Shown piece by piece: positions 3,496-58,457 of a DNA stretch of 64,000 bases. The notes under the pieces were generated by a model that searched no databases, was not told the origin of the DNA, and saw nothing but the letters and a program-made list of their open reading frames with translations. Position 1 is the stretch's first letter, and each line of letters starts with the position of its first letter. The DNA comes from a virus: positions 57,998-121,997 of IMG/VR virus record IMGVR_UViG_3300013006_000020; one strand, written 5' to 3'. The translations under genes were made by a program, and so were the position numbers.

Positions 3496-4290
3496 TTACA
3501 CAGTGTTATCAGGTGGTTGATTGTTGCCTTGGTTTTGTTGCAACCAAATACCTAGAGCAATTATTGTTGCCGCGACTGTACCAACTGCAATACCAGCTGG
3601 TAAACCCAAGCCTGTTAAATCTAGAACAAATGATCCAGCGGCTAAAGCTACGCCAAGAGCAATTATGGCTGCTACGGTTAGACCTAGACCAGCCAACCAA
3701 TTAGCAAGTTGTTCGTTGCCACCGTTTGCCAACACATACATTCTAATAGCAGCATTTTGAGCGCCTGTTCGAAGATAGATGGCGGCTATTGCAATAAGAC
3801 CTTCCTCGGTTTTATCCTTTAATCTTTCTAAAACTTCATCGGGTGTAAGCCCTAAGCCGTCAGCCGCAACCCCTATTCTGATTTTCACTTCATTAAGAGA
3901 TAAAAACTCTGCCCTGCACTCATCGTCTAATTTATCGATTACGTCTTTTAGAATTGAAAATAACTCAACGGCATCCATCCCAGGTTCAGGCTTAGAATTT
4001 TTTATTCTTCTTATTAATATATCTAAAGCCTTTTTTGCACAAGCACCTGTACCAGACTGATTTTCTTTATATAATTGGTATAATTTACGTAACAGGGGAA
4101 TTAAAAGCAAGCCAAGTGTTGGTAATAAGACTGTAACCCACGTGTAATCTTTAGGTTCTTCTTGTCTTATTGAGTCATCAGATTCTAGAGGTCCAATGCC
4201 CTCAAATGTATTTGGCGCTATAACTGTATCGCCTTTACGTGCGGCGATCTTGGCAATGTAGTTGAATAGACGAATGTCGTTTTCTCTCAT
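3496..4290 (-). CDS. Membrane protein, possible paralogue of the upstream gene
   Basis: 264 aa, not recognised. Layout: about 45 soluble residues, one hydrophobic helix (VTVLLPTLGLLLIPLL), a soluble helical middle, then a glycine/alanine-rich double hydrophobic hairpin (about 195-250) and a Gln/Asn-rich tail. The 330-aa protein upstream has the same order of parts. It overlaps that gene by 4 bases (ATGA). A virion or membrane-associated structural role is a guess. Confidence 0.55.
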   Translation of the reverse strand: MRENDIRLFNYIAKIAARKGDTVIAPNTFEGIGPLESDDSIRQEEPKDYTWVTVLLPTLGLLLIPLLRKLYQLYKENQSGTGACAKKALDILIRRIKNSKPEPGMDAVELFSILKDVIDKLDDECRAEFLSLNEVKIRIGVAADGLGLTPDEVLERLKDKTEEGLIAIAAIYLRTGAQNAAIRMYVLANGGNEQLANWLAGLGLTVAAIIALGVALAAGSFVLDLTGLGLPAGIAVGTVAATIIALGIWLQQNQGNNQPPDNTV

Positions 4291-5279
4291 GTTGATGGCA
4301 CCAGTCCTCTAGCTATCTTCTCTAATATCTCTTGTATTCTTTGTAGCGCAGCAGGATTTAATGCTGCCCCAGCCGCACTTGCTGCAGAGGCAGCAGCATT
4401 CGCTGCAGTTGAAGACAACCATACACCAAGAGTGGCAAGGCTTCCACCACCAAGCAAGAATGCGCTGAGGGCAACAAGACCCGCAGCAAGCGCCGCCACT
4501 AGAACTGTAGAGCCGACGCCATATGAATCACTAAATCCACTTACAAGAAGTGTAGCGGCATCAACAGCTAAAGCTGTAGTCATGGCAGAACCAACACCAA
4601 TTACAAAAGCGTAAGCAAAAGCTTCTAGATCGCCATCATTAAAATATTTATCAATAGCGAATCTAATTTTATCAAGAATACCTTGTGGTAAGTTTGGAAG
4701 TCTATCTGTTACATACTTTTTAAAAATATCTTTAACAAGTCCAGGAAATGATGTGATACAATTTCTTAGTTTTTTACGAATATCCGACATTTCTTCTGGA
4801 CTATCAACATTATTTATACCTCTAACATTGTCTATTGCTGTACCTATTTGGGTCATAGCAGTACCCCCCTCTTTAAACGCGTCCCACGCCGTTCTTAGCG
4901 CTATAAGAAGTTCTGTTAATCCCATATTTGATGTTAAACTTTGACCAGTCTGCGATCCAAGAGAACCACCAAGACTTGTCCTGAAGGCATTTGAAACTAT
5001 TCTTATAATATCTTCTTTTAACCATCTATTTATTAATTTTGCGCACTCTTTAAACTTTTTTATATTTTGACTTTTAGCCCAAGCAAATGCAACAACTGCA
5101 CTAAGCCCAAGTGCCTTAGCTAGCGATATAAAAAAACTATAATCATCAGAATCACTAACCGGCGCATCTTCTTCCATTGGTTCAGCAGTATATAAAACTG
5201 TTGGAATAGGACTATTAACAGCAAATGCGTAATTGTTAGCTATAGAATTTAGTGATTTAATGAAGCGTTGGTTGTTCAC
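4287..5279 (-). CDS. Membrane protein with Ala/Gly-rich C-terminus, GTG start
   Basis: 330 aa, starting at GTG 5279, 2 bases after the promoter-like GTGTATTATTTAT. The N-terminus (about 40 residues, ending SPIPTVLYTAEP) precedes a hydrophobic helix (FFISLAKALGLSAVVAFAW). The C-terminal third is hydrophobic and rich in Ala/Gly. It is not recognised. The short N-terminal helix followed by a P-x-LY-x-x-P stretch resembles the leader of the Cys-rich paralogues at 21002-23706, possibly a shared virion-targeting or propeptide element. Confidence 0.55.
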   Translation of the reverse strand: MNNQRFIKSLNSIANNYAFAVNSPIPTVLYTAEPMEEDAPVSDSDDYSFFISLAKALGLSAVVAFAWAKSQNIKKFKECAKLINRWLKEDIIRIVSNAFRTSLGGSLGSQTGQSLTSNMGLTELLIALRTAWDAFKEGGTAMTQIGTAIDNVRGINNVDSPEEMSDIRKKLRNCITSFPGLVKDIFKKYVTDRLPNLPQGILDKIRFAIDKYFNDGDLEAFAYAFVIGVGSAMTTALAVDAATLLVSGFSDSYGVGSTVLVAALAAGLVALSAFLLGGGSLATLGVWLSSTAANAAASAASAAGAALNPAALQRIQEILEKIARGLVPST

Positions 5280-5280
5280 A

Positions 5281-5293: not shown

Positions 5294-5295
5294 AA

Positions 5296-5502
5296 TCAGA
5301 TTTGCAGTAAAAAGAACTTCTTTTTGTGATGAGCCATTTTTGCGTACTTTAGCACATCTATTACAGTATCTATTTCTTCTATAGAAGACAGGAGAACTGA
5401 TGATCCACCTGATTTTAATTCAATACCATGTTCTCTTTCAATTATTTCAATTCCACGAACACGATGAGAGGCTTTAATTTCACCAAAATTATTAGGACTC
5501 AT
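5296..5502 (-). CDS. Small hypothetical protein
   Basis: 68 aa from the ATG at 5502 (MSPNNFGEIKASH). This start was preferred to one at 5535 because it limits overlap with the upstream gene to 11 bases. Mixed alpha/beta, with a C-terminal lysine-rich end. No motif recognised. Confidence 0.45.
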   Translation of the reverse strand: MSPNNFGEIKASHRVRGIEIIEREHGIELKSGGSSVLLSSIEEIDTVIDVLKYAKMAHHKKKFFLLQI

Positions 5503-5683
5503 TGGATTCTTTATTGCAGTTGATCTCAACACCATCTACCTTTGTAAAGGTTTTAGCGTAATCAATAGCCCTATTCCATAAGTCAATATCCATTTCTTTC
5601 GTGTACTCAGCAAACTTCAGACCAAATACAATCATCGCCTTAGCAAGTCTCGGATCCATATCGTTCATATCTATTTCGTCCAT
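5492..5683 (-). CDS. Small acidic hypothetical protein
   Basis: 63 aa from ATG 5683. This start was chosen because a perfect AGGAGG lies 4 bases upstream, whereas the longer open frame to 5704 would begin inside a terminator-like hairpin. Helical and acidic at the N-terminus (MDEIDMNDMDP). Function unknown. Confidence 0.6.
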   Translation of the reverse strand: MDEIDMNDMDPRLAKAMIVFGLKFAEYTKEMDIDLWNRAIDYAKTFTKVDGVEINCNKESNES

Positions 5684-5693
5684 AAATCCTCCT

Positions 5694-5728
5694 AAAAAGC
5701 CCACCAGAACAGTTACGGACTGATGGGC
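5694..5728 (-). terminator. Intrinsic terminator or attenuator
   Basis: On the minus strand GCCCATCAG pairs with CTGGTGGGC (9 pairs, one G-U) around a 12-base loop and is followed by TTTTT. The G-U pair would be an A-C mismatch on the other strand, so the structure belongs to the minus-strand RNA. It sits directly before the AGGAGG of the next gene. Confidence 0.7.
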
Positions 5729-5780
5729 GAACTACGCGTGTAACTCAGACGAGCCTAAGATGCCCGAATAGCGTAATCAC
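5694..5780 (-). ncRNA. Candidate structured leader RNA or small RNA
   Basis: Between the dnaE stop and the next Shine-Dalgarno there are about 87 bases with no frame of note but good pairing potential on the minus strand. ATTACGC can pair with GCGTAGT (7 pairs, one G-U) enclosing a CGGGC/GCTCG hairpin with a 7-base loop, followed by the 9-pair terminator hairpin. A promoter-like GTGTATATATA lies just before it. It could be an independent short RNA or an attenuating leader of the 5683 gene. Inference from sequence only. Confidence 0.4.
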
Positions 5781-5781
5781 C

Positions 5782-5792
5782 TATATATACAC
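5782..5792 (-). promoter_or_regulatory. Putative phage promoter, GTGTATATATA
   Basis: Immediately follows the TAA of dnaE on the minus strand. Member of the GTGTAT family. Would drive the leader RNA at 5694-5780. Confidence 0.4.
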
Positions 5793-7676
5793 TTAATCAT
5801 AATACGAGTATGAAAACTCCCCAAACTCAATTTCATCAAGTTTGAAATTAATCATGCGCTGTATTTGCAAGACTTTTTCAAGAGCCGTCACACCAAGGAT
5901 ATCAAATTTAACACCACCTAAATATTCAATATCAGCTCCTTCAACATCAATTACCATAGAGTCTAGCTTTTCTGAATATACCATTGGAAATAGATTGCTT
6001 AGTGGTTGATCGGCAATAATTATTCCTGCAGCGTGTACACTTTCATTTCTTGGAACTTCCTCAATACGAAGTGCGTAGTCAAATGCTTCTTTGAACTGCT
6101 CGTAATATTCAGCAATAGATTTGATATTATCAATATTCCAACGAATAATGCCGTATGATGGATCTTCCTTTTGCATTTCAACAAGATCATCAGTAATCTT
6201 TGCCTCTTCAGCAAACTTTTTAGTGATCTGATTTGAAACATCAAAATAGTCTTGCGTTGGCTTCAAAAGCTTAAATACTTCTTTTATTGCGCCGCGACCC
6301 TTAAACCTTGAGTGAGTAATAATATGACCAACGCAATCGTTTCCGTATTTTTCCCTAATATATCCAATAAGTGACTCTCTAAAAGACGGGGGTACATCCA
6401 TGTCAATATCTGGTAGTGATACGTTTTCTTTAGTGTTTCTGCCTTCATTGTAAAATCTTTCAAACGGCAATTCTCTTCCCAGATCGTATCCAAGTGTTGG
6501 ATCTGGGCGCATTGGATCAACTGAGGATATGCCTATTAAGTAAGAGATCATGCATCCAGAAGAAGAACCTCTGATATCAGCCGGGACCCCCTTTGATCGC
6601 AGACTATTTATAATGTCATGTACAATGAGGAAGTAAGACGACATGCCTGCCTGTTTAAACACCTCTAGCTCATGCTGAATTCTTTTGATATAAGCGTCTT
6701 TTAGTGCTGGATCTTGCTTAAACTCATCCAGAAGACCAGTTGACTTAAACCCTGTACGACAAAGCTGGCGCAAATACTCGTGTGAATCGGTAATTTTATG
6801 ATCGCCAACCTTAAAACTAGGAAGGATTGGGCGTTCCTGGATAGTGTAATCTTCAACTAGATCAAGCAGCTTGAGGGTCTTTTCACCATTCTTAAGCTCT
6901 TTAGACAGGTATCCGCGCGCCCATCGCTTGTCAAATATTCTCGAATCGCTGATAGCATCACAGCACGAGCCACCATCATCCTTGGCTTTAGTCAATAGTT
7001 CGTGAAGCTCAAGATCTTCTTTATTTAGATAGTGAATATTATGTGCTGGCATAGAATCAGAAAATTCTTCGCTGATTTTTTTACCCAATACAAGATGTAC
7101 TGGTAGAAAGCTTACATCATATGTAAGAAAAACATGCTCATATTTCTTACGATAATTTGCTAGGACTTTTTCAACGCGAATCTTCCAGTCTTTATACAGT
7201 AGCTTTTCGCAATCTTCTACAGAGTCGCTTGCATACGCCATTTCATAATTTACAAAAGCGCTAGAGTATATTTCGCTACGCAGATCACCAATAAGACAAA
7301 TCAGTCCAGCCTTATACGGATAAAGTGTTTCTACTTGAGTACGGGGCATACCATTAAAAGCAAGGGCTTCTTTGGTTCTAGCCATAGAAACAAGCTTAAC
7401 TATATTTTTATATCCAATCTTGTTTTTGGCTAGTAGCGTAATGCGACCAACAAATTCTTCGCCATTGTATGTATCAAGCTCCACGCCAATAATTGGTTTG
7501 ACTCCCGAGTCTTTGCATTCCTTAAAGAAGGGGACTACACCTTTAATATTGTTGTGATCGGTCATACAAATTGCTGGTATGCCGTATTCTTTGCATTTGG
7601 AAACAAGAGAATCAATGGTGACAACGCTATCAAGAAGTGACCATGAAGTATGTACGTGAATAGGAATGTAGCTCAT
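5793..7676 (-). CDS. dnaE: DNA polymerase III alpha (DnaE), N-terminal half only
   Basis: 627 aa; bacterial DnaE is about 1,100-1,200 aa. The PHP domain is at the N-terminus (HVHTSWSLLDS at 7-17, MTDHNN at 38-43). The palm follows: RGSSSGCMISYL (369-380), the two catalytic aspartates in PDIDMD (422-427), HAAGIIIAD (548-556), and the third catalytic aspartate in VKFDILG (D592, equivalent to E. coli D555). The protein ends 35 residues later with a clean TAA. Fingers, HhH and OB domains are missing and no second half follows in this window. No intein signature is seen at the end. It probably works with a separately encoded C-terminal subunit. It overlaps the RecB-like gene by 4 bases. Confidence 0.85.
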   Translation of the reverse strand: MSYIPIHVHTSWSLLDSVVTIDSLVSKCKEYGIPAICMTDHNNIKGVVPFFKECKDSGVKPIIGVELDTYNGEEFVGRITLLAKNKIGYKNIVKLVSMARTKEALAFNGMPRTQVETLYPYKAGLICLIGDLRSEIYSSAFVNYEMAYASDSVEDCEKLLYKDWKIRVEKVLANYRKKYEHVFLTYDVSFLPVHLVLGKKISEEFSDSMPAHNIHYLNKEDLELHELLTKAKDDGGSCCDAISDSRIFDKRWARGYLSKELKNGEKTLKLLDLVEDYTIQERPILPSFKVGDHKITDSHEYLRQLCRTGFKSTGLLDEFKQDPALKDAYIKRIQHELEVFKQAGMSSYFLIVHDIINSLRSKGVPADIRGSSSGCMISYLIGISSVDPMRPDPTLGYDLGRELPFERFYNEGRNTKENVSLPDIDMDVPPSFRESLIGYIREKYGNDCVGHIITHSRFKGRGAIKEVFKLLKPTQDYFDVSNQITKKFAEEAKITDDLVEMQKEDPSYGIIRWNIDNIKSIAEYYEQFKEAFDYALRIEEVPRNESVHAAGIIIADQPLSNLFPMVYSEKLDSMVIDVEGADIEYLGGVKFDILGVTALEKVLQIQRMINFKLDEIEFGEFSYSYYD

Positions 7677-8671
7677 TGGTCGTCTTTAAATGTATTTCTT
7701 CTGTCAGAAGTCTTTAGTGCTTTTTCTTCAGCTTTGCTCTTACGAACCTCTCCGACCCTTAGTATAGTTTTGTCGATTCCGTTAGCAATTAGATAGTTAA
7801 ATACATTATCGCATACGCTGCAACCATTTGCAGTCTTCGTTTTTCCGAAGTGGCAAGTGGTCTTACATTTCCATGCTTGAGAGCCGTTTACTTCTTTAAT
7901 TCTAGTTGGCAAATGATTGCCCTTAATCGTGTTGAACTGCTCTTTAATTATGTTAAGCGTTTCTTTACGCTGATCATCATCAAAACAAACAGTAAACGGC
8001 CCACCATCATTAACAAAGTGAATTGTAAGAAGTCTTGTTTTGTATTGAGGATACAGCATGGAGACAGCAAGATCGTACATACGAAGCTGTATATCTTTGC
8101 TCGCAAAGTAGTCGTATTCCTTAAGCTCTCCAGTTTCCCATGACTTTCTCGATCCTGTTTTCCAATCTATAATTTCTAGTGTTTGGTCGTCAAGCTTGGT
8201 AATAAGATCTATTGTTCCACGAATCTCATAATTACCAGCGGTTGTTTTTTTACTAAGAACATCGTAGTACTCAAAGGTAAAACCAGGGAGTGTTAGAGGA
8301 ATTCTAAACTGCCGCTCAGTATGAAGCACCTTGAGATTTCTTGGATCGTATTTAGTTCCTAGAACTTTTTCTATTGATTTAAGACAAAACTTTTTGTCAG
8401 CACCGTCCGCTAACTCAATCTTGCCCGTATTTTCAGTCTTATATCTCTTCCAGCAAATATCAAGAAGCTTAACATGATCAAGCAAAAGGCCGTCTTTATG
8501 ACCTAGTTTTGTGGCTCTAGCCATTATTTCAAGCACATGGTGAACTATTGTACCGAGCAATGCTTTTTTACCAGAGCCACTTGGTATTTCTAGAATTGAA
8601 TCAAGAAAAAATTGAAACTGACAACCTTCATATGTTTTAATGGATGATGCTCTTAGATATTGAATGTTCAT
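7673..8671 (-). CDS. RecB/Cas4-like PD-(D/E)XK exonuclease
   Basis: 332 aa. Motifs of the PDDEXK_1 (RecB C-terminal) family are in order: LRASSIKTYEGCQFQFFLD at the N-terminus, GTIVHHVLEIMA, then the catalytic GTIDLI ... LEIIDWKTG (D...DxK), and QLRMYDLAV. Cysteines near the C-terminus (CKTTCHFGK, CSVCDNVF), with one near the N-terminus (C17), could hold an Fe-S cluster as in AddB and Cas4; this is inference. Expected role: ssDNA end processing in replication or recombination. It lies in an overlapping operon between the SLOG gene and dnaE. Confidence 0.75.
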   Translation of the reverse strand: MNIQYLRASSIKTYEGCQFQFFLDSILEIPSGSGKKALLGTIVHHVLEIMARATKLGHKDGLLLDHVKLLDICWKRYKTENTGKIELADGADKKFCLKSIEKVLGTKYDPRNLKVLHTERQFRIPLTLPGFTFEYYDVLSKKTTAGNYEIRGTIDLITKLDDQTLEIIDWKTGSRKSWETGELKEYDYFASKDIQLRMYDLAVSMLYPQYKTRLLTIHFVNDGGPFTVCFDDDQRKETLNIIKEQFNTIKGNHLPTRIKEVNGSQAWKCKTTCHFGKTKTANGCSVCDNVFNYLIANGIDKTILRVGEVRKSKAEEKALKTSDRRNTFKDDQ

Positions 8672-9123
8672 CTGCTGCTCTTTTCAATGACAGGCTCTAC
8701 TCTAACGATTGGTTGATTAAATATTCGCTCTGAGTTTTTTATAACTACAAGCTCATTTGCCGTCGTTTCTATAAAGTCCTGTGTTGATTTTATCTTTTTG
8801 GGGGAGTATCCTCCACCGTTTTTTACAAACTTTTGCTTCGATAGCTTCAAGATTTCTTTATATACTTTTTGTATTTGTGGAGGCCATCGTTCCTCTATTC
8901 CTTTGAATGGAATATATATAACATATGGTATTTCATTTTCATGACAAGCGTATATAAAATCTAATTCAAAGCCTATTGATGCACGTACTATGCATATTGA
9001 ATCATCGGTATCAATAGCACTGAGATGCGCAATCATTTGATTGCGAACAAATAATCTAACTGGGTCGTTAAGATCATATGCTCCGTTAAAGTTAACCGCC
9101 TCTGACTTTACGCCAATTATCAT
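8668..9123 (-). CDS. SLOG-domain protein (YpsA-like)
   Basis: 151 aa. The region GFELDFIYACHENEIPYVIYIPFKGIEERWP... followed by an IQKVYKEILK helix resembles YpsA-type SLOG proteins, which bind nucleotide-like ligands in a Rossmann-like fold. N-terminal IIGVKSEAVNFNGAYDLNDPVRLFVR fits the first strand-helix unit, though the usual glycine-rich GSR start is not obvious. It overlaps dNMP kinase and the RecB-like gene by 4 bases each. A role in nucleotide sensing is inferred; some SLOG proteins belong to phage-defence or anti-defence systems. Confidence 0.5.
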   Translation of the reverse strand: MIIGVKSEAVNFNGAYDLNDPVRLFVRNQMIAHLSAIDTDDSICIVRASIGFELDFIYACHENEIPYVIYIPFKGIEERWPPQIQKVYKEILKLSKQKFVKNGGGYSPKKIKSTQDFIETTANELVVIKNSERIFNQPIVRVEPVIEKSSR

Positions 9124-9758
9124 ATATAAAGCTCTAGTATTTTTTTAATGGCGTCATTTTTCTCTTCCATGTCCATATCATCATTTTGTATGAAATGAAA
9201 TTTTTTGATATTACTGAAGTCATAATTATCAAGAGCCGTTTCGCTTTCGTGTTGATTATTAAGTGGATTGCGTGTGAACTTTATCACTATTGGTTCGTAA
9301 AATGTTGCGTAATTTATTTCATTTGGGAATCGCGCATCTGAGATCAATGCAAAATCAAGGTTTTCCTCTTTGATTTTCTTAATGGTGGCTTGAACCCAAC
9401 AGTCTTGATAAAATCTTCTAAAGATATTTGTACCAAAAACTTGCATTACGTCTCGTGCAGTCATATGGTCAGTTAATTTAGACATTGGCTTATTTTGCAT
9501 TATCATTGCAATATCACTTCCAGACATTGGTAAATCAGACCACTTGAATTGTGTTAAAGTGTTTTTATCCGAGTTTTCACCCCAGCATTGATTATATTCA
9601 AGACCAAGTATATTAACGCATACTTGTTTAAGAGAATCAGCAAATGGATAGATTTTTGATGAATAGCCATGTTCTTTTAGAAAGCCTCTAACATAAGAAC
9701 AAGCTGTGTCTTTTCCACTCTGCGCCTTGCCAGTCATTATAACAATTTGTGTTTTCAT
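9120..9758 (-). CDS. Deoxynucleoside monophosphate kinase
   Basis: 212 aa. Walker A GKAQSGKDT (about residues 10-18) with the D that marks this family, FGTNIFRRFYQDCW in the middle, and SDARFPNE (about 140-147) are hallmarks of T4 gp1-type dNMP kinases. These phosphorylate dGMP, dTMP and modified dCMP to feed dNTP synthesis. It sits between primase (4-base overlap) and the SLOG gene, in the replication operon. Confidence 0.85.
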   Translation of the reverse strand: MKTQIVIMTGKAQSGKDTACSYVRGFLKEHGYSSKIYPFADSLKQVCVNILGLEYNQCWGENSDKNTLTQFKWSDLPMSGSDIAMIMQNKPMSKLTDHMTARDVMQVFGTNIFRRFYQDCWVQATIKKIKEENLDFALISDARFPNEINYATFYEPIVIKFTRNPLNNQHESETALDNYDFSNIKKFHFIQNDDMDMEEKNDAIKKILELYI

Positions 9759-17426: not shown

Positions 17427-19339
17427 GTGATATCAACCAGTTCGCATTTATCGCCACTACACGCAAATGTTTGTGTGCCGATAGTGGAATCAGTCTTTTC
17501 GTAAGAAGTTAATTTTGACCAATCAAAATCTATTGGCATAGAAACAAGCACTTTCTCGTATTCTTCCTTAGAGCAGTCCTGATATGGTGCCTGTCTATAA
17601 GAATGGTCTGAGTGTGGTAAGAAGGAAATTCCACTGATCTCGTCAAAGTGGTTATATACCCAAGCACCAACTTCCATCCATTCGTGTTCTTTGACTGTTA
17701 CAGTAATAGACGGCTTATGTTCACACCAGTTTCTTTGATACATTAGCCAAGCATCAAGATGCTGTATTGCAGTGAATGAATTTCTAGTTCTCGAGCCTTC
17801 CGCTTTCATGGGGAATGAGAAAACCATTGTTGTGTCTGGCTTCATTACACATGCCTCGTAGGGAAAGCCATTGTCAATCATTAGCTTACACAATGGATCC
17901 TTCTTATCAGCCCGAACAGTTCTGATATAGTAGTTATTATGGCGTGGATGAATGCCAGAGGCAGCATCAACAAGTTGAGAAACAGTACCGCTTGGTTTTA
18001 CACAAGTGATTGCTGCTGCTGCATTTATGCCGACTTCCTTTGCAAATTTTTTATTTGTATCAATAGCAACTTGCTTTACTCTTTTTAGCATATCTTCGGT
18101 TTCAGGACATACAGTACCCATCATTTGATTGTCCATTATTCCTGTAAGTGAAACGCCGAGTAGAGCCTCTTCATCACAATTGTTCTTCCATTCTGATGAA
18201 AGATATGGGAAATATGTTAGTGAGGCCTGAAATGTTCCAAGGATGGTGGCCAATCTCGTCTTTCTAGAAAGGGATTCCTCTGTGTCGTCGTGACGAACAA
18301 TAACCTCTGTTAGATTGCAGAACTCACGATCTCTTAGGATAATTTCAGAACATGGGTTGGTTCCGAACTCATAGGATGCGTCTCTTCGATCTCCTAGTTT
18401 TTCAACAGTCTTTTTGCATGCCTCACGATTGAAGATACCGCGTTCGCCACTTTTGCTCTTGTAAAGCGAAACCCATTCTTCCATAAAGATACCAATGTCT
18501 GGTCTTTCCTTGTAGGCAACGGAGTTATTTGCAAGACCGCGTTGTGGATTTTCATTCCACCAAGCCCCAGACTTTGCGTCTCGCATTCTTTCATCAGTAA
18601 GATTGCTGAGCGATATAAGTGCAGATCTTCGCACACCTCCAACCACGACAACTTCTGCAATCTTACAGACCACATCGTGGCACTCGATTGAAGTGAGTTT
18701 TCTTCCTGCAGCCTTCTTAAAAGTATCAATAGTGAATCTAAAGAGATCTTCCAGTGGCCCCGGACCAGATGCACGTCCACCAAATGTCTTGAGTCTTGCG
18801 CCAGAAGCACGAACTTTTGACACGTCCCATTTTGGAATTTGGCCTCCAATAAGTAGGGATACCAGTTCTCTGTATGCCTTAGCCCAGCCAGCCTTGCTAT
18901 CTTGAACGACAATAGTAGTCTCGCTGTTTGTAAACTCTTCAGCGATAGTTGGGAGCTTTTCGACGTATTGTCGCTCAACAGAAAATCCAACTCCCGTGCC
19001 GCACAGGAGAATGTATAAGATTTCGTCAAACGCCCTGACTCGGCTGACCGTGACATATGAACAATTATACCCCGCAACATTATCTCGCTTCAAGGCTTCA
19101 CCGGCGGTCATCAGCGCCCGCATGCTTGGCATAATTTCAAGATTAAGTACAGCTGTTTTAAGCTCTGTAACCAAATCTTTGTTAATATTATAAGATTGAT
19201 TTGTCTTTAGATGATTAACAAAAAAATCAAAGTATCTGTCAACAGTTTCAATCCACGTTTCACGACGGCCAAGCTCATCGCGAAATCTTGAGTATCTTGA
19301 TAAATGAATAAACTGTTGGTACTGTGTTGGTAGACTCAT
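17423..19339 (-). CDS. nrdJ: B12-dependent class II ribonucleotide reductase
   Basis: 638 aa, close to the monomeric RTPR type of Lactobacillus leichmannii. Visible: GRRETWIETVDRYFDFF near the N-terminus, the first active-site cysteine in VAGYNCSYVTV, NPCSE (radical cysteine loop) in FGTNPCSEIIL, FCNLTEV (second of the disulfide pair), VKPSGTVSQLVDAASGIHPRH, and the C-terminal CxxxxC pair (C627, C632) that passes electrons from thioredoxin. It makes dNTPs without oxygen or a second subunit but needs adenosylcobalamin from the host. It is the first gene of a run that includes dut. Confidence 0.9.
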   Translation of the reverse strand: MSLPTQYQQFIHLSRYSRFRDELGRRETWIETVDRYFDFFVNHLKTNQSYNINKDLVTELKTAVLNLEIMPSMRALMTAGEALKRDNVAGYNCSYVTVSRVRAFDEILYILLCGTGVGFSVERQYVEKLPTIAEEFTNSETTIVVQDSKAGWAKAYRELVSLLIGGQIPKWDVSKVRASGARLKTFGGRASGPGPLEDLFRFTIDTFKKAAGRKLTSIECHDVVCKIAEVVVVGGVRRSALISLSNLTDERMRDAKSGAWWNENPQRGLANNSVAYKERPDIGIFMEEWVSLYKSKSGERGIFNREACKKTVEKLGDRRDASYEFGTNPCSEIILRDREFCNLTEVIVRHDDTEESLSRKTRLATILGTFQASLTYFPYLSSEWKNNCDEEALLGVSLTGIMDNQMMGTVCPETEDMLKRVKQVAIDTNKKFAKEVGINAAAAITCVKPSGTVSQLVDAASGIHPRHNNYYIRTVRADKKDPLCKLMIDNGFPYEACVMKPDTTMVFSFPMKAEGSRTRNSFTAIQHLDAWLMYQRNWCEHKPSITVTVKEHEWMEVGAWVYNHFDEISGISFLPHSDHSYRQAPYQDCSKEEYEKVLVSMPIDFDWSKLTSYEKTDSTIGTQTFACSGDKCELVDIT

Positions 19340-19390
19340 GTTAGTAGTTATTATAGGATTATTAGTTTCGCATACACCTTGATCGTGGAT

Positions 19391-20368
19391 TCAAATTGCA
19401 TATTCTGCTGCGATTTTTTGCGCGTAAATATCCACACCGTACTTCTTGTAGAGATCGAAATTCTTCATGCCAATACTTTGTCGATCTTGTGCCGAAATAG
19501 ACGCCATCTTTTTTGTGCGATCTAGTAGATCTTCAAAGTCCTTGCACAACCATTCTTCACTCTCAAAAAGTTCTGGTATGGCAGAGTCTGCATAAGAAAG
19601 AACTGGCTTGCCGTGAGAAAAAGCCTCTAGTATAGAGAAACAGAATGCCTCATTTGAGGATGGGTAGTGGTATACATCACAAGAGTTGAGGATATTAAGC
19701 TTTTGCTCTTCATTGATGTTTGCCATAACCATTGCATTTTGTGCGTTAGTATGATTTAAATATGCTGCAACGCCATCAAAATATGCACGATCTAGTATTT
19801 CGCCGCCAATAATAAACTGATTCTCTGGCATTCGTGCGGCGCAATAAATAGTATCGTGAATCATTTTTGAAGGACAGAAACTTGAGACACGACCAAAAAC
19901 TGGAACTTCTGATTGTTCTTTAATTGTCTCTGAGGAATTAATTCCATACTTAACAATTTCCCCATTAGTAACCCATGGGCTAAGAGACTTTTGATATTCT
20001 GAGCTAAAGAAAACTTTATTGAATTGTGTGTGATCAAAACCGACTTGTTGCCCACAAAGTATACTAGCAAAGCGCTTGCACTTTGGAAGGTTACTAAAGA
20101 AGGATGGATTTTGTGAGCCTGGAAGGAACACATGAATTACATCTGGATTGAACTTATGAATATAATCCACACAAGAGTTATCATAATCAAAACCCTTATC
20201 TAGGTATAGTCGAGTTTCCCCTAGTTTAGAGAACTTTTCCCTATAAGGGCCATCAATACAACCAATAAATGTCATTTCATTGTTTGCAGACAATTGTTTT
20301 GCTAGGTTAAAAGAGGCTAAAGATGAGCCTCCCGAGTTAAAGAAGTTGTTGACGAAAGCTATTCGCAT
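19391..20368 (-). CDS. GT-B glycosyltransferase (group 1)
   Basis: 325 aa from ATG 20368 (MRIAFVNNFFNSGGSS), preferred over a longer frame because it starts the Rossmann strand. The GGSS loop, a middle PVFGRVSSFCPSKMI and a C-terminal VYHYPSSNEAFCFSILEAFSHGKPVLSYA (the EX7E-type donor site) fit family GT4. Likely adds sugar to phage DNA, a virion protein or a host glycan. It ends the minus block and faces the (+) island divergently across 34 bases. Confidence 0.8.
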   Translation of the reverse strand: MRIAFVNNFFNSGGSSLASFNLAKQLSANNEMTFIGCIDGPYREKFSKLGETRLYLDKGFDYDNSCVDYIHKFNPDVIHVFLPGSQNPSFFSNLPKCKRFASILCGQQVGFDHTQFNKVFFSSEYQKSLSPWVTNGEIVKYGINSSETIKEQSEVPVFGRVSSFCPSKMIHDTIYCAARMPENQFIIGGEILDRAYFDGVAAYLNHTNAQNAMVMANINEEQKLNILNSCDVYHYPSSNEAFCFSILEAFSHGKPVLSYADSAIPELFESEEWLCKDFEDLLDRTKKMASISAQDRQSIGMKNFDLYKKYGVDIYAQKIAAEYAI

Positions 20369-20380
20369 ATTAGAGTATAG

Positions 20381-20391
20381 GTGTATAAATA
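20381..20391 (+). promoter_or_regulatory. Putative late promoter, GTGTATAAATA
   Basis: Contains TATAAATA, the exact T4 late promoter core, inside the local GTGTAT motif, 11 bases before the ATG at 20403. It is the only signal in the 34-base divergent gap and would serve the (+) Cys-rich island. Confidence 0.55.
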
Positions 20392-20402
20392 AAAGTACAG
20401 CT

Positions 20403-21005
20403 ATGGATACCAAAGAACCCGACTATATTTTTACAACTCGTGAAGCTGCCGAAAACATGGCAAAGAAACTTGACTGTGGCGGCACGCAGGAGTTTTATAA
20501 CATAGATGGCAAGCAAAGTGGATTAAAAGCAAATACAACCTATTATCTGCCGTGCTCTTCACGTGAGGCACTTCACGATAATTTGGCGAAGTATAAAAAG
20601 AAAATGTCAAAAGCTGAAGCTGTTGACACAGATGAAATTGATTTTCCAGAGTGCGAAGGGCCAGTTTCATTTGATGCTTTCCTAAAATCTTATTTTACAC
20701 AGGGCGGCGACTATGTTAGTGACTCTGTTAAAAATTCTCTTAAGAAAAAGGCTGAAGATTATAATAAAAAAGGAAAACACAAGATACGAACGTCAACACT
20801 TGTGACGGTTTTTAGAAGAGGTATTGGTGCTTACAAAACAAATCCTCAGAGCGTAAGACCAAATGTACGAAGTGCAGATCAATGGGGATACGGAAGAGTA
20901 AATGGTTTCTTGCACGCTCTAAGAACAGGGTCATTTAAGAGAAAACCATTTGATACAGATTTGTTACCAGCATCACATAGCCTATCATCTAAAGGCAAAA
21001 AATGA
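20403..21005 (+). CDS. Conserved phage protein (DUF5824-like)
   Basis: 200 aa from ATG 20403; a longer frame to 20280 overlaps the divergent gene and lacks support. The C-terminal half (TLVTVFRRGIGAYKTNPQSVRP ... WGYGRVNGFLHALRTG ... FDTDLLPASHSLS) matches a widespread phage domain of unknown function (DUF5824 from memory). The N-terminal half is a separate unit. It opens the (+) island and overlaps the first Cys-rich paralogue by 4 bases. Confidence 0.65.
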   Translation: MDTKEPDYIFTTREAAENMAKKLDCGGTQEFYNIDGKQSGLKANTTYYLPCSSREALHDNLAKYKKKMSKAEAVDTDEIDFPECEGPVSFDAFLKSYFTQGGDYVSDSVKNSLKKKAEDYNKKGKHKIRTSTLVTVFRRGIGAYKTNPQSVRPNVRSADQWGYGRVNGFLHALRTGSFKRKPFDTDLLPASHSLSSKGKK

Positions 21006-21955
21006 AATTAGAAGACCAAATTCGCAAATTAATTGCGTTTAAAAAACCAGAGCCAACTGCGTTATATGAGCCAACGCCAATGGTAGATGAGCCTGTTGTT
21101 GATTCTATTAAACCAAAAGGTGGTAGTGGATTACGCGGGGCAGAAACATGCAGCTACTGGGATGGTGGGCCATGGGCATGGCCAATGCTGGCTAATCCCA
21201 TGTGCAAAATATGTGACACAAATCCACAGCCATTTTGTGATTGCTTGAGGGCTTATAACAATCCATGCTATAGAGAGCATATACCATGGCGGAACCATCC
21301 TGATCCACAACCACCTACACTGCCTCCAGCTTTTCCAAATATGCCAGAGGGCTGTCCTAGTATTGAACAGATGGACGGTCCTGGATACACCGAGGAGGAA
21401 TGGGTTGGTAATCCAGAAACACTTAGTGGCGAAAGATATATATGGAATAGCTGGCCTTGGTTAACAAGAACCGCCGATGGTAAACTAGGCGAATATGATT
21501 TTCACGGGCTATACAATTGGCCTGGAGATCCAGAAACAGATGGTGGTAGCAATCCAAATTTTCATCCACTTGATCCAGACAGCTTATGGAGCACAGATAT
21601 TGATGGACGGCGCTGGTACATGCGTGATATATGGGCTTATTGGTTTGGGCCTAACGGAGGTGGTACTTTTTATCCAACACTTCGAGATAGGAGAATGAAG
21701 GAAATGGGATGCTTTGGTATTCCTCTTTTGCGCACCAATGGTGCGTGTTGCGCGCCCGCTGGAGAGTTTGGTGGCTTTACGTGTAGCTCAACCACTAGTA
21801 ATCAATGTAATGGGACTTTTTATCCTGGAAGGAACTGCGCGGATATTGGAGGCGATAATTGTGGTTTGGCACGAAATCCCATTCAAGAAAGCAATCAAGT
21901 AAAAAGACCGAAAGAAGCAATGGATATGGTGGTTTCATTACTGAAGAGAAAATAA
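21002..21955 (+). CDS. Cys-rich paralogue 1 with C-terminal GACC domain
   Basis: 317 aa. Three parts: an N-terminal amphipathic helix and proline stretch (LIAFKKPEPTALYEPTPMV), a variable Trp/Pro/Asn-rich middle, and a C-terminal cysteine domain: GACCAPAGEFGGFTC, QCNGTFYPGRNCADIGGDNCG. A last segment KRPKEAMDMVVSLLKRK is helical. No classical signal peptide. The cysteine spacing resembles GACC..DG.C....C..G repeats that I associate with planctomycete extracellular proteins. Probably virion-exposed. Shares layout with the next three genes. Confidence 0.65.
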   Translation: MKLEDQIRKLIAFKKPEPTALYEPTPMVDEPVVDSIKPKGGSGLRGAETCSYWDGGPWAWPMLANPMCKICDTNPQPFCDCLRAYNNPCYREHIPWRNHPDPQPPTLPPAFPNMPEGCPSIEQMDGPGYTEEEWVGNPETLSGERYIWNSWPWLTRTADGKLGEYDFHGLYNWPGDPETDGGSNPNFHPLDPDSLWSTDIDGRRWYMRDIWAYWFGPNGGGTFYPTLRDRRMKEMGCFGIPLLRTNGACCAPAGEFGGFTCSSTTSNQCNGTFYPGRNCADIGGDNCGLARNPIQESNQVKRPKEAMDMVVSLLKRK

Positions 21956-21956
21956 A

Positions 21957-22943
21957 ATGAAAAGATCATTAGAATCAATACTAAATAAACTTATAGCCAA
22001 AGTTGAACTAGCGCCCTTATACGACCCTGTTCCATTAGAGCCAGAGGTAGGCCCTGGTGAAGTAGCACAAAAAGGCGGCGGGAGACCTGGAGAACGTGGT
22101 TGCGGATATGCCGTACTTGGAATGGGTCAACCTGGTTTATGGGGTGGTCGTGAGCCAGGATCTTATAACTCAACTGTAAATTATAGTATTGCATATGGAG
22201 ATTGCCCGCTTTGCAGGGGAGCTTCACCACCAGCATTTTGTGCTTGCATAGCTGCTTATAGCAATCCGTGTTATAACTGGCACTGGAGTAATGGTACTGG
22301 TAATTTGAATCCTGATCAAACTAATCCAACCTGGGATCCTCCAGCGTATTCTTCTTATCCGCCTGGATGCCCAAGTAAAGAAGAATTAGAAGGGTTTGGA
22401 TATACCGAAGAAGAATGGATTGGCAATCCAGAAACTCTTACTGGCCAGCGATACAGATGGTTTGCTTGGGATTATTTAACAAGAATAAGAAACCCAGATG
22501 GTAGCTGGTCTCCTAGTCAACATGCTCCATTGGGATATGAAACTATATGGGGATACGGCCAGGCAAACCCATTTGATCCAGAAGCATACGCTTCTAGCAT
22601 TCCAAGAATAACTATGCGTCAACTGTGGGAAGAGTTTTTTTCAGGAATTTATGGTAGATATCGCCCAACATTACTGCAGAGAAAAATGTTGGAGAGCGGA
22701 TGCAACGGAAATCCAGGCGAGCAGATAGGCGCTTGCTGCAGTCCAGATGGTGAATTTGGCGGTTTTAGATGTTCTCAAACTTACGGCCATGAATGTCAGG
22801 GAACCTTTCATTCTGGAAAAACATGCGCAGATATCGGTGGCGATAATTGCGGTTCTGCAATGAATCCCATCCAACAAAACGACCAAACAAAAAAGACAAA
22901 AGAAGCAATGGACATGGTGATGTCTTTACTTAAAAAAAAATAA
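21957..22943 (+). CDS. Cys-rich paralogue 2 with C-terminal GACC domain
   Basis: 328 aa. The N-terminus (SILNKLIAKVELAPLYDPVP) and C-terminal domain (GACCSPDGEFGGFRC ... ECQGTFHSGKTCADIGGDNCG ... KEAMDMVMSLLKKK) match paralogue 1. The middle is also related to paralogue 1 (CxxCxxxxxPFCxC / CPLCRGASPPAFCACIAAY, GYTEEEWxGNPETL, then a tract before the GACC domain). Starts 1 base after the previous stop (TAAAATG). Confidence 0.65.
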   Translation: MKRSLESILNKLIAKVELAPLYDPVPLEPEVGPGEVAQKGGGRPGERGCGYAVLGMGQPGLWGGREPGSYNSTVNYSIAYGDCPLCRGASPPAFCACIAAYSNPCYNWHWSNGTGNLNPDQTNPTWDPPAYSSYPPGCPSKEELEGFGYTEEEWIGNPETLTGQRYRWFAWDYLTRIRNPDGSWSPSQHAPLGYETIWGYGQANPFDPEAYASSIPRITMRQLWEEFFSGIYGRYRPTLLQRKMLESGCNGNPGEQIGACCSPDGEFGGFRCSQTYGHECQGTFHSGKTCADIGGDNCGSAMNPIQQNDQTKKTKEAMDMVMSLLKKK

Positions 22944-22944
22944 A

Positions 22945-23706
22945 ATGAAAAGATCAATAGAAGACATTATTAAATTAGTGGCTGTAAAACAAGCGGCTCC
23001 TCCACCAACCCGTTTAGAAAAGCCTAGTACGGTAAAAGAAGATCCGACGCGGCCTATGGCCACTCTTTGTGGAATAACATATCCAGCAGAATATGACAAT
23101 GGTATAGCAGTTGGCCACTACGACGTGCGAGAAGTTTACCGAGATATAATACCTTGGATGTATTGCAGACCTCTACCAGAGGGTGGATGCGAACCACTAT
23201 ACCCTTCAGAACCTATCGACTCGATGCCATCTCAACAAACCGTAACGGATAGGGATTTGCCTTTGACTTGGCAAAGGGAACACCCAGAGTTTAATCCTAA
23301 CGATCCGGCAACATGGGGTTCCGTATTTGGTCCTGGTGGTTTTGTTGATCGTATGATAAGATACGCTAATTGCCCAAGGGACGAAAACTATCAACCAATA
23401 CCTTGTCATAGTGAGGAAACTATTCGTGAATTTATTGATATTGTTCGTCAGTTTTACGCCGTTAGATGCGGATTTGTAGCTTCTCAGACTGGCGCTTGCT
23501 GTAGTCCTGATGGAGAATTTGGCGGATTTAGATGTGATTCAACCACAAGCACTGGATGTGTGGGAAATTTTTATCCTGGAAAGAGCTGTGCAGACATCAA
23601 TGGAAACAATTGTGGTTTAGCACCAAATCCGCTTCAGCAAAGCAATCAAGTGAAAAGACCGAAAGAAGCAATAGATATGGTTATGTCCTCACTTAAAAGG
23701 TCATAA
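22945..23706 (+). CDS. Cys-rich paralogue 3 with C-terminal GACC domain
   Basis: 253 aa. Same N- and C-terminal parts (GACCSPDGEFGGFRC, GCVGNFYPGKSCADINGNNCG, KRPKEAIDMVMSSLKRS). The middle differs from paralogues 1-2 but matches paralogue 4: VTDRDLPLTWQREHPEFNP and WGSVFGPGGF. The array thus has two subfamilies (1-2 and 3-4) with a shared end domain. Confidence 0.65.
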   Translation: MKRSIEDIIKLVAVKQAAPPPTRLEKPSTVKEDPTRPMATLCGITYPAEYDNGIAVGHYDVREVYRDIIPWMYCRPLPEGGCEPLYPSEPIDSMPSQQTVTDRDLPLTWQREHPEFNPNDPATWGSVFGPGGFVDRMIRYANCPRDENYQPIPCHSEETIREFIDIVRQFYAVRCGFVASQTGACCSPDGEFGGFRCDSTTSTGCVGNFYPGKSCADINGNNCGLAPNPLQQSNQVKRPKEAIDMVMSSLKRS

Positions 23707-23729
23707 AAATTAAGTTGGTATCTGAATAG

Positions 23730-23741
23730 GTGTATTTTATA
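23730..23741 (+). promoter_or_regulatory. Putative phage promoter, GTGTATTTTATA
   Basis: Lies in the 47-base gap between paralogues 3 and 4, preceded by ATAG as at 20381. A weak AGG follows at 23743-23745, upstream of the ATG at 23754. Confidence 0.45.
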
Positions 23742-23753
23742 CAGGTAAATAAA

Positions 23754-24560
23754 ATGTCAGATTCAATTGAAAATAAACTCCGTAATATTTCAAAGTCAGT
23801 TAAAGCACCGCCAATTCCAACTCTTTTACGAAGGCCTGAAAAAGTAGATGAAAGTCTCATGGTCGGTGGAGGCGGTGGTGGCTCTTATAGCATTTGTGGA
23901 GTAGAAATTCCAAATGATGATAATTACACTATATTTATGGTGTACACCACTATAATTAGTGCCATGTATTGCAGAGAAGCACCGGTCGCCGGGTGCTACA
24001 CCGTGTTCGTTGGCCAACCATTTGATGGTTCGATAACTGGCGAAGGCCAAGTTACTGACCGAGATCTGCCTTTAACTTGGCAAAGAAACCACCCTGAATT
24101 TGACCCTGCAGATCCAGGCACTTGGGGTTCCGTATTTGGTCCTGGTGGTCTAGCTGAAAGATATGTAAGATTCTGGAATTGCAACGAGGCTGATGGCGGT
24201 ATGGACGGAAATGGACCATGCTCCAACGGCTATGATCTTGCTAAAATTGCACGACTGGTTGAGATAATTCGTCAGCTTTATATTGCTAAATGCGGATTTG
24301 CTGTATCTTCAGCGGGAGCTTGTTGCGCGCCAGCTGGAGAATTTGGTGGCTTTACTTGTACAGAAGTCGCTGGAACAAATAACTGTCAGGGGAATTTTTA
24401 CCCAGGACAAAGCTGTCAACAAATCGGTGGCAACAATTGCGGTTTAGCGCCAAATCCACTTCAGCAAAACCCAAACGAGCAAAAGATGCGAAACCGAGAC
24501 GAGCAAAAGAAAGTTGCTGGTGAGTTAATAAAACAACTGAGGTTATTTACAAAAAAATAA
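23754..24560 (+). CDS. Cys-rich paralogue 4 with C-terminal GACC domain
   Basis: 268 aa from ATG 23754 (MSDSIENKLRNISKSV); an upstream in-frame ATG at 23730 lies within the promoter motif. Middle domain as in paralogue 3 (VTDRDLPLTWQRNHPEFDP, WGSVFGPGGL). C-terminal GACCAPAGEFGGFTC, NCQGNFYPGQSCQQIGGNNCG. A glycine run follows the N-terminal helix. The lysine-rich tail is longer than in the others. Confidence 0.65.
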   Translation: MSDSIENKLRNISKSVKAPPIPTLLRRPEKVDESLMVGGGGGGSYSICGVEIPNDDNYTIFMVYTTIISAMYCREAPVAGCYTVFVGQPFDGSITGEGQVTDRDLPLTWQRNHPEFDPADPGTWGSVFGPGGLAERYVRFWNCNEADGGMDGNGPCSNGYDLAKIARLVEIIRQLYIAKCGFAVSSAGACCAPAGEFGGFTCTEVAGTNNCQGNFYPGQSCQQIGGNNCGLAPNPLQQNPNEQKMRNRDEQKKVAGELIKQLRLFTKK

Positions 24561-24564
24561 AACA

Positions 24565-24921
24565 ATGAAAAACTACATCGCAAAACTTAATATTGCTGCT
24601 GCAGAGTACTTTACAGTTGCCGGTATGGCAAGACACGTTTGCGTATATTGCTCAGCTTCAGGTTCAGCCTCAGGTTTTTATAAACCAGACCGTGTTATTG
24701 TTAGTGCGACAGGCGATAGATGTAGAGGAAACTATACGCTATCTTATGATATACCAGCAAGCCCTTCTGGAACCTGCGAATACGCTTTTTGCCAGAACGT
24801 ATCTGGTGTTGTAATAGGGCGTATTGGGGCTTATTATTGCTCATCACAGCCCCCTGTTTTTAGTACACCAATTCCATCGAGAGTTACACCACAAGCTGCA
24901 CCGCCATTTAGAATGATGTAA
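24565..24921 (+). CDS. Small Cys-rich protein ending the (+) island
   Basis: 118 aa with seven cysteines, Ser/Pro-rich, beta-prone. It lacks the GACC domain, so it is not an obvious paralogue, but it has similar composition and lies 4 bases after paralogue 4. Its stop faces that of the minus-strand nuclease at 24925. Probably a surface or virion protein; inference only. Confidence 0.5.
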   Translation: MKNYIAKLNIAAAEYFTVAGMARHVCVYCSASGSASGFYKPDRVIVSATGDRCRGNYTLSYDIPASPSGTCEYAFCQNVSGVVIGRIGAYYCSSQPPVFSTPIPSRVTPQAAPPFRMM

Positions 24922-24924
24922 AGA

Positions 24925-25401
24925 TTATCTTATAAAACTTTCTATGGGCCTGAGTACACGCTGCTCAAGCCCATATGTTTTTCCATAACCAAGATCAATC
25001 AAGTTTTTGTCTTGTATAAGATCTGCAGAAGAACACCATCCAACTATGTTATAGTTTGGTCGCTGACCAACAATTAAAACGTAAACATCTGAAGGTGTTT
25101 CGCTCTTGGATCGTCTAGCCAAAAGTTTACCGGATTTATACTTAGTTGTTTTAATATCAATCTTCTTGCCGTTAAATAGTACATCATCACCGCCCTTTCG
25201 GGGGCTAATTGACATATCTGGATACAGATTTACCGCCTTGCAAAAGGCAAACTCTCCACATATTCCCTCTAGGTCTGTTTCTTCACATGACTGAGGACCA
25301 ATCTTTTTATCAGAAACGCCCCCGTTTCTATTGGAGGCGTATCTGTTTTTCGCAAGCCATTCACATATTTTTATTTCAGATTCAGTTAGCTTTACTATCA
25401 T
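24925..25401 (-). CDS. PD-(D/E)XK-type nuclease
   Basis: 158 aa. EGICGEFAFCKAVN, then GGDDVLFNGKKIDIKTTKYK gives the E...D...DxK layout of restriction-fold nucleases found in many phages. Likely an endonuclease or resolvase; specificity cannot be told. Overlaps the methyltransferase gene by 20 bases. Confidence 0.6.
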   Translation of the reverse strand: MIVKLTESEIKICEWLAKNRYASNRNGGVSDKKIGPQSCEETDLEGICGEFAFCKAVNLYPDMSISPRKGGDDVLFNGKKIDIKTTKYKSGKLLARRSKSETPSDVYVLIVGQRPNYNIVGWCSSADLIQDKNLIDLGYGKTYGLEQRVLRPIESFIR

Positions 25402-27525: not shown

Positions 27526-27906
27526 TTACTTATCGCCAATAAAGTTATCTCTCACTGCAGAAATGTAATCTGCAGCAAGTGTTATTTTACCAAGCATCCA
27601 AGCTTCTATTTCTTTACCCTGTTCTACATGCTGAGCAATCTCGCCAGCGTTTACAATAAGTGCGTTTATATCACTCATAAACATTTCTTTGGTTTCTTCA
27701 TCGACCTCAGAAGTGTCCATTTCTTCCATTTCTGGCATCTCTTCTTCGCCCATCTCCATAGGCATTTGCATAGCCTCTGGAGACATAGCAGGGGCATCAT
27801 CACCCATTTGAGTCTGCTGCATCATCATTGGCATTTGTGTCATGCCCATCTCGTCTTGACCAACGGCGTGTTGAAGTTTTGAAATCAGGTCTTTAATATT
27901 TGACAT
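27526..27906 (-). CDS. Met/Glu-rich protein with conserved phage C-terminal helix
   Basis: 126 aa. N-terminal helix (SNIKDLISKLQHAVG), a methionine- and glutamate-rich low-complexity middle (about 20-65), then IEAWMLGKITLAADYISAVRDNF, a C-terminal segment I know from many phage virion-region proteins (WMxxKITxAADYI). Probable minor structural or scaffold protein; inference. Confidence 0.6.
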   Translation of the reverse strand: MSNIKDLISKLQHAVGQDEMGMTQMPMMMQQTQMGDDAPAMSPEAMQMPMEMGEEEMPEMEEMDTSEVDEETKEMFMSDINALIVNAGEIAQHVEQGKEIEAWMLGKITLAADYISAVRDNFIGDK

Positions 27907-58439: not shown

Positions 58440-58457
58440 ACACAAACCGACTCAGAC

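What the first reader, a model, noticed from the sequence alone, without database searches (positions are those of the whole stretch)
21002..24560. Tandem island of four proteins with a shared GACC cysteine domain
Four neighbouring (+) genes share an N-terminal helix-proline leader, a C-terminal GACCxPxGEFGGFxC...NCG domain and a KEAxDMV tail, with two unrelated middle types (1-2 and 3-4). The cysteine spacing resembles repeats of bacterial surface proteins. The island interrupts a long minus block and has its own promoter motifs. This looks like a diversifying virion-surface cassette, possibly for adhesion or immune-like variation.
Basis: partly seen in the sequence, partly recalled or inferred. 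Interest (0 to 1): 0.75.

Follow-up and report, generated by a model that had tools for sequence, protein, structure and literature searches.

The report
Hypervariable disulfide-rich phage protein cassette
A large, uncultured tailed phage carries a fast-changing row of cysteine-rich proteins that share a start peptide with a cell-wall-cutting enzyme and about a dozen other late proteins of the same phage, which suggests (not yet proven) a common address tag for proteins carried by the virus particle to the host surface.

Summary
Four tandem (+) genes (21002-24560) share a leader helix, a six-cysteine GACC domain and, in three of four, a KEAxDMV tail. The operon runs from ~20381 to 24921: DUF5824 before them and a fifth leader protein after.

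The window is half of a 122-kb tailed-phage contig. At the same site relatives carry 0-5 such genes between conserved flanks. Variation is by recombination in the shared 3' module (one junction seen), mosaic middle domains and high dN/dS (0.16-2.1; flanks 0.03-0.08). In each genome all copies have the same C-terminal type (GACC or GSCC).

The leader (amphipathic helix plus PxPTxLxxP) also starts about 16 other proteins, including a T4-type lysozyme and membrane-segment proteins. Leader proteins have even cysteine numbers, share the promoter motif GTGTATW with structural genes, and are among the fastest-evolving genes. GACC repeats are mostly planctomycetal.

Best reading: late, disulfide-bonded, virion-borne proteins sorted by a common leader, acting at the host envelope and diversifying by recombination. 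Virion location and sorting are inferred. No homologue in GenBank phages, Pfam, PHROGs or PDB; no reverse transcriptase or invertase. Works like T4 internal proteins; not shown to be one.

The parts
20381..20391 (+). GTGTATAAATA, phage late-type promoter motif (GTGTATW) heading the operon
   Evidence: motif within 42 nt before starts of structural genes 10/26, leader genes 8/20, other (-) genes 10/113
20400..21005 (+). DUF5824-like protein, first gene of the operon and conserved left border of the variable cassette
   Evidence: Pfam PF19141 E 8.7e-4, below curated cut-off; 75-98% identical in relatives
21002..21955 (+). cassette gene 1 (long type): leader, variable middle with 8 Cys, GACC domain 21740-21862, KEAMDMV tail
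21957..22943 (+). cassette gene 2 (long type): GACC domain 22728-22850
   Evidence: orthologue in L007 is a hybrid with the gene-3 tail
22945..23706 (+). cassette gene 3 (short type): GACC domain 23491-23613
   Evidence: AlphaFold pLDDT 73, no Foldseek match
23730..23741 (+). GTGTATTTTATA, second internal promoter motif, before gene 4
   Evidence: kept in L007 as part of the recombined intergenic stretch
23754..24560 (+). cassette gene 4 (short type): GACC domain 24315-24440; divergent tail
24565..24921 (+). fifth (+) gene of the island: 118 aa, leader MKNYIAKLNIAAAEYF, 6 Cys, no GACC domain; the only one of these genes left in L023 and L024, which lack the cassette
24925..25401 (-). DUF5843 protein, conserved right border of the cassette
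   Evidence: Pfam PF19161 E 4e-8, PHROG 18407 E 1e-15
3496..4290 (-). leader-type protein with hydrophobic C-terminal segments, rapidly evolving
4287..5279 (-). leader protein (SPIPTVLYTAEPMEED) with hydrophobic segments, dN/dS 0.58; strongest non-cassette leader match in this phage
27526..27906 (-). small leader-type protein (SNIKDLISKLQHAV), no Cys; in L023 and L025 a small leader protein with a GACC domain stands in this neighbourhood

Best explanation
The four genes are the most variable part of a phage-wide set of about 20 late proteins that carry a common N-terminal sorting peptide (amphipathic helix, then PxPTxLxxP) and, mostly, a disulfide-bonded payload. The peptide loads them into or onto the virion during assembly; on infection they work at the host envelope next to a leader-tagged lysozyme and leader-tagged membrane proteins, helping the virion pass or bind host surface layers. 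The cassette changes by homologous recombination between tandem genes at the shared GACC/tail module, which swaps middle domains and changes copy number, under diversifying or relaxed selection. Shown: cassette anatomy, variability at a fixed site, one recombination junction, raised dN/dS, coherence of C-terminal type, leader on other genes, promoter and cysteine statistics. Inferred: disulfides, virion packaging, envelope site of action, benefit to the phage.
For: Fixed site, variable content: conserved flanks, 0-5 genes. Junction: L007 gene 2 is window gene 2 up to the end of the GACC domain, then window gene 3 tail, intergenic stretch and gene 4 start. dN/dS 0.16-2.13 in cassette pairs against 0.03-0.08 in RNR and DUF5824; between near-twins G000 and G003 leader genes and tail-tip genes are near the top of the dN/dS list (55910: 1.09; 44470: 1.00; 62284: 0.58; 79954: 0.55; median 0.08). 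Leader: cassette-trained profile, one iteration, 19 non-cassette hits at i-E<1, 15 in the first 40 residues, none in reversed proteins; PTx[LFV]x2-4P in N-termini of lysozyme, 55198, 62284 and relatives of 44470. Lysozyme: T4 lysozyme match E 1.3e-6 with the EG...D..G.T motif, G002 orthologue above the Pfam cut-off, leader kept in both. Cysteines: 29 of 30 cassette proteins even; leader proteins with 4 or more Cys 15/15 even in G000 and 28/31 in other genomes, other proteins 43/70. Promoters: structural 10/26, leader 8/20, other (-) 10/113, P = 0.0005 and 0.001; profile-only leader subset 4/5, P = 0.0006.
Against: No virion proteome; no relative has been isolated. The leader matches outside the cassette are individually weak (most i-E 0.1-1) and part of the leader list was first picked by eye, so the amphipathicity test is circular and the other tests partly so. 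The lysozyme has an odd Cys number (3) and is the only PF00959 match in the contig, so it may simply be the endolysin. A similarity of the cassette tail to the scaffold C-terminus was tested and not found. No cleavage site was identified.
Confidence: 0.5

Rival explanations
1. The proteins are displayed on the outside of the virion (head or tail decoration), the leader being a docking peptide; variable middles are adhesion domains.
For: GACC repeats occur in Planctomycetota proteins and, in other viral contigs, in long collagen-like or fibre-like proteins; cassette and tail-fibre/tail-tip genes are both among the fast-evolving genes.
Against: Leader also on proteins with membrane segments and on a muramidase, odd for a passive decoration; C-terminal type (GACC or GSCC) does not track tail-fibre type among GACC genomes.
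Confidence: 0.3
2. The leader is an export signal or lysis-stage module: proteins are made late, leave the cell by a non-Sec route or at lysis, and act free outside (with the lysozyme as endolysin).
For: No evident Sec signal peptide although disulfides are expected; lysozyme may be the only endolysin; late-type promoters.
Against: No known leader of this kind; many structurally unrelated cargoes; no transporter or processing peptidase recognised nearby.
Confidence: 0.12
3. Intracellular zinc-binding host-takeover proteins: the cysteines bind metal rather than forming disulfides.
For: Even cysteine numbers would also fit Cys4 zinc sites.
Against: The GACC spacing (CC, then single cysteines many residues apart) is not a usual zinc motif; the same repeat is in long multi-repeat Planctomycetota proteins that look extracellular (inference); late promoters.
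Confidence: 0.06
4. Assembly or binning artefact of tandem repeats in metagenomes.
For: All sequences are metagenomic contigs.
Against: Ten contigs with intact, differing reading frames, dN/dS below 1 in most pairs, and a separate near-identical contig, L006, with the same gene order.
Confidence: 0.02

Closest known systems
T4 internal head proteins (IPI, IPII, IPIII, Alt) with the capsid targeting sequence (PMC9026906)
   Same: Several unrelated, poorly conserved late proteins share a short N-terminal peptide and vary between close relatives; in T4 the peptide alone loads cargo into the head and cargo is ejected into the host.
   Different: T4's peptide is about 10 residues and cleaved by gp21; here the leader is 15-20 residues plus a PT motif with no known cleavage; payloads are cysteine-rich, larger and in tandem; a lysozyme and membrane proteins are among them; packaging untested.
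Ejection and inner-head proteins of giant phage SPN3US (PMC10052503)
   Same: Many internal head proteins, some with N-terminal propeptides, thought to be delivered to the cell.
   Different: Propeptides there are mostly 111-254 residues and shown by mass spectrometry; I know of no GACC domains or tandem hypervariable cassette in it.
GACC cysteine repeats of Planctomycetota (Phycisphaerae) proteins
   Same: Same motif order GACC..P.G..C..C..G.F....C; phage profile finds them at E 1.9e-5 to 5e-3.
   Different: Bacterial repeats are shorter and sit in long multi-repeat proteins; here one terminal domain with an EFGGF insert; reverse profile search is weak (best 0.001).
Diversity-generating retroelement variable proteins
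   Same: Hypervariable phage protein next to conserved genes.
   Different: No reverse transcriptase; variation is modular and recombinational.
GH24 phage lysozyme (T4 lysozyme family)
   Same: Leader-bearing protein at contig 8459-9304 matches T4 lysozyme including the catalytic motif.
   Different: It has about 57 residues of leader and proline-rich linker in front of the enzyme domain.

Membership tests
T4-type internal proteins with capsid targeting sequence | Shared N-terminal peptide on several otherwise unrelated proteins | tested here: met
   (weak individually, position-specific, none in reversed control)
T4-type internal proteins with capsid targeting sequence | Late expression with head genes | tested here: inconclusive
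   GTGTATW motif shared with portal, protease-scaffold and tape-measure genes; a motif, not a transcript
T4-type internal proteins with capsid targeting sequence | Peptide alone loads cargo into the prohead and is cleaved by the prohead protease | not testable with these tools
   needs virions
T4-type internal proteins with capsid targeting sequence | Sequence homology to known phage internal proteins | tested here: not met
   no PHROG, Pfam or GenBank-phage match for the cassette proteins
DGR target proteins | Reverse transcriptase in the genome | tested here: not met
   PF00078 no match in the 122-kb contig; controls ring
Invertible or recombinase-shuffled tail cassettes | Serine or tyrosine recombinase and inverted repeats | tested here: not met
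   PF00239, PF00589 none; no inverted repeats of 40 nt or more in 20400-25000
GACC cysteine repeat (Planctomycetota type) | Six-cysteine GACC pattern with significant profile similarity | tested here: met
   forward profile E 1.9e-5, 7e-5, 2.6e-4 in a set of 669 ORFs, no match in proteins without GxCC; reverse search marginal
Virion structural protein | Present in purified particles | not testable with these tools
   no proteome of any relative
GH24 lysozyme (contig 8459-9304) | Catalytic Glu/Asp/Thr motif and family profile score | tested here: met
   T4 lysozyme E 1.3e-6; G002 orthologue 23.3 bits, cut-off 22.3; the window phage's own copy 21.2 bits, just below

The most novel reading that the evidence does not exclude
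A modular virion cargo system: one N-terminal address peptide, unlike T4's, sorts some 20 interchangeable, disulfide-bonded or membrane-active proteins of a probable Planctomycetota phage into the particle for delivery to the host envelope, with a recombining tandem cassette as its diversity generator and a genome-wide matched C-terminal domain (GACC or GSCC) that must fit a common partner.
Probability: 0.3. Interest if true: 0.85.

Novelty: new variant of a known kind. Interest (0 to 1): 0.62.

Why it matters
If the leader is a packaging signal, it would let one predict which proteins of an uncultured phage lineage ride in the particle, give a second, independent example of peptide-addressed cargo besides T4, and provide a natural set of disulfide-bonded proteins that phages deliver to bacterial envelopes. 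The cassette offers a clear case of recombination-driven diversification without a reverse transcriptase or invertase. The Planctomycetota link, if right, points to a host group with few known phages (own knowledge).

Tried and rejected
Homologues in GenBank phages, Pfam, PHROGs, NCBIfam and PDB sequences: none. Foldseek of the short-type model (pLDDT 73): nothing in PDB or BFVD; the long-type model was too poor to search (40.7). Bacterial genomes with the short-type profile: none. Cassette tail as a mimic of the scaffold C-terminus: not supported. SleB-like hydrolase in place of the lysozyme in G005 (my reading by eye): not supported. Tail-fibre type as the partner that fixes GACC or GSCC: GACC genomes carry different fibre types, so not supported. 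DGR, invertase, integrase: absent. Standard sigma-70 promoters: not above chance. Two pattern scans for more GACC/GSCC cassettes had wrong spacing and say nothing.
Full report
What is there. The four ORFs exist as described. Genes 1 and 2 are one type (52% identical over the whole alignment, middles 39%), genes 3 and 4 another (middles 42%). All have a leader helix, a variable middle, a 41-42 residue domain with six cysteines beginning GACC, and a basic tail; the tail of gene 4 differs. The operon is longer than reported: a promoter-like GTGTATAAATA at 20381, a DUF5824-like gene (ATG 20400, stop overlapping the ATG of gene 1), the four genes, and a fifth small leader protein, 24565-24921.

Genome. 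The window is bases 57998-121997 of a 122-kb virus contig. It is a tailed phage: terminase (PHROG 2, E 3e-26), portal, tape measure, capsid-like protein. Structural genes lie on (+), replication genes mostly on (-). Its terminase is only about 22-26% identical to cultured phages. G001 (122.6 kb) is a circular permutation of the same gene order, so the contig is probably near complete.

Variation. IMG/VR relatives (L006 is nearly the same phage) keep the flanks: ribonucleotide reductase, glycosyltransferase and DUF5824 on the left, DUF5843 on the right. Gene counts are 4 in the window, 3 in L007, 4 in L008, 3 in L009, 5 in L010, 2 in L011, 2 in L019, 4 in L020, 2 in L022, 1 in L025, 0 in L023 and L024. 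Near-twins G003 and G007 are 94-100% identical in most shared genes, while the G003 cassette genes fall to 46-77%. In L007, gene 2 matches window gene 2 to the end of the GACC domain and window gene 3 from the tail through the spacer into gene 4: a recombination junction in the shared module that removed (or, in the other direction, added) a gene. dN/dS of cassette orthologues is 0.16-2.13 against 0.03-0.08 in the flanking genes (Nei-Gojobori, pairwise, so high values can also mean recombination or relaxed constraint).

Two C-terminal types. L008, L009 and L011 have GSCC..FSEFG..C..C.GVF..GG.C.G.NPCG or close variants in place of GACC, in 9 of 9 copies, while leaders and middles of several are 79-94% identical to GACC orthologues (L010_4 with L011_2, L007_3 with L009_3, L010_5 with L009_2, W_2 with L008_1). 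All 21 copies in the other genomes are GACC. Random assignment would leave every genome uniform with P about 3e-6, ignoring relatedness. Either gene conversion or the need to fit a common partner explains this; tail-fibre type does not look like that partner.

The leader is not confined to the cassette. A profile trained on cassette leaders, iterated once, gives 19 hits at i-E<1 among 963 other proteins of the phage contigs; 15 start within 40 residues of the N-terminus; reversed proteins give none. One of the 15 is a truncated cassette protein (G005_3_626) that slipped past the filter, and several are orthologues of one another. The best in this phage, contig 62284-63276 (window 4287-5279), reads SPIPTVLYTAEPMEED against PEPTALYEPTPMVDE in gene 1. 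The motif PTx[LFV]x2-4P is also at the N-terminus of 55198, of relatives of 44470, and of the protein at 8459-9304. That last protein is a T4-type lysozyme (E 1.3e-6 to T4 lysozyme, catalytic motif kept) with about 57 residues of leader and proline-rich linker. G002 has a 67% orthologue with leader FNSISKLRFIFGIEAPTPTVL, over the Pfam cut-off. In G005 an unrelated leader-type protein stands in its place. Other members by inspection: 3699, 4559, 5288, 5902, 6381, 6741, 7064, 7828, 55910, 61493, 85523. Three have hydrophobic C-terminal segments.

What the set has in common. (a) Promoters: GTGTATW is enriched upstream of starts (GTGTATA in 11 upstream regions, 20 copies in the contig); it precedes 10 of 26 structural and 8 of 20 leader genes but 10 of 113 other (-) genes (P 0.0005 and 0.001). 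Using only leaders found by the profile, 4 of 5 (P 0.0006). (b) Cysteines: 29 of 30 cassette proteins have an even number (range 9-18); leader proteins with four or more, 15 of 15 in this phage and 28 of 31 in four others, against 43 of 70 other proteins (P 0.0017). Related sequences are not independent, so these P values are upper estimates of the strength. Even numbers that change in pairs suggest disulfides, so a place outside the cytoplasm; yet none has an evident signal peptide (by inspection). (c) Speed: between G000 and near-twin G003, leader genes 55910, 44470, 62284 and 79954 and tail-tip genes are near the top of the dN/dS list.

GACC elsewhere. A scan for GACCxPDGxC in bacterial genomes stopped at its limit with 118 stretches; of the 80 listed, 66 are titled as Planctomycetota (my count). 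The phage profile matches these repeats with E 1.9e-5 to 5e-3, best match outside GxCC proteins 5.5; the reverse search is marginal (0.001 for G006, 0.16-0.6 for the window). Twenty-five other viral contigs have such repeats, several in long collagen-like or fibre-like proteins. This suggests, without proving, a planctomycetal host and an extracellular role.

How it most likely works. Leader proteins are made late and taken into or onto the particle through the common peptide; after release or on infection their disulfides form and they act at the host envelope, with the lysozyme opening peptidoglycan and membrane proteins perhaps forming a conduit. Variable middles meet variable host layers; recombination at the shared 3' module supplies variety. 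The packaging step is by analogy with T4, where the first 10 residues suffice to load an internal protein and where these proteins are poorly conserved between relatives (PMC9026906).

Limits. All data are metagenomic contigs; no proteome exists. The leader list was partly chosen by eye; the profile-only subset is small. Gene calls are mechanical. Structure prediction rests on 12-16 sequences.

Noticed in passing
whole contig; in the window e.g. 20381, 23730, 5287 (-), 29167 (-): Phage promoter-like motif GTGTATW, usually 5-30 nt before start codons of structural and leader genes; could serve to call late genes in this lineage.
   Followed up: partly
contig 4559-9304 (outside the window; L012): A second tandem leader cluster (MSLEKSIQKLTQVIQAAK paralogues, even Cys) upstream of the terminase, also varying in number between G000, G001, G002 and G005; some copies are preceded by a terminator-like GC hairpin plus T run and then the GTGTATA motif.
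   Followed up: partly
window 58000-64000: GC rises from about 0.40 to 0.57 towards the contig end; in G001 both contig ends adjoin, so the phage has one GC-rich region.
   Followed up: no
window 406-1934: Tail-fibre region (KNSTT..LLRGEIAVN N-terminus starting upstream of the window) with the 302-aa gene 1026-1934 ranging from 37 to 92% identity between relatives; dN/dS 1.23 between G000 and G007.
   Followed up: partly
contig 19039-20973 (L013:39-1973): Head gene between portal and capsid that looks like a protease-scaffold fusion (WMHKG, VSMEC; by inspection only); it contains SPIPTVQEPGA, resembling the leader motif, in G000 (SPISTLQEPGA in G001); no database match.
   Followed up: partly
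L023:12692-15493 and L025:6682-7395: Relatives without or with a short cassette carry other leader plus Cys-rich proteins, one of 494 aa with 22 Cys and one of 115 aa that is little more than leader plus GACC domain.
   Followed up: partly
L233-L257: GACC cysteine repeats in long fibre-like or collagen-like proteins of unrelated viral contigs (e.g. L256 with 14 GxCC motifs, L240 and L243).
   Followed up: no
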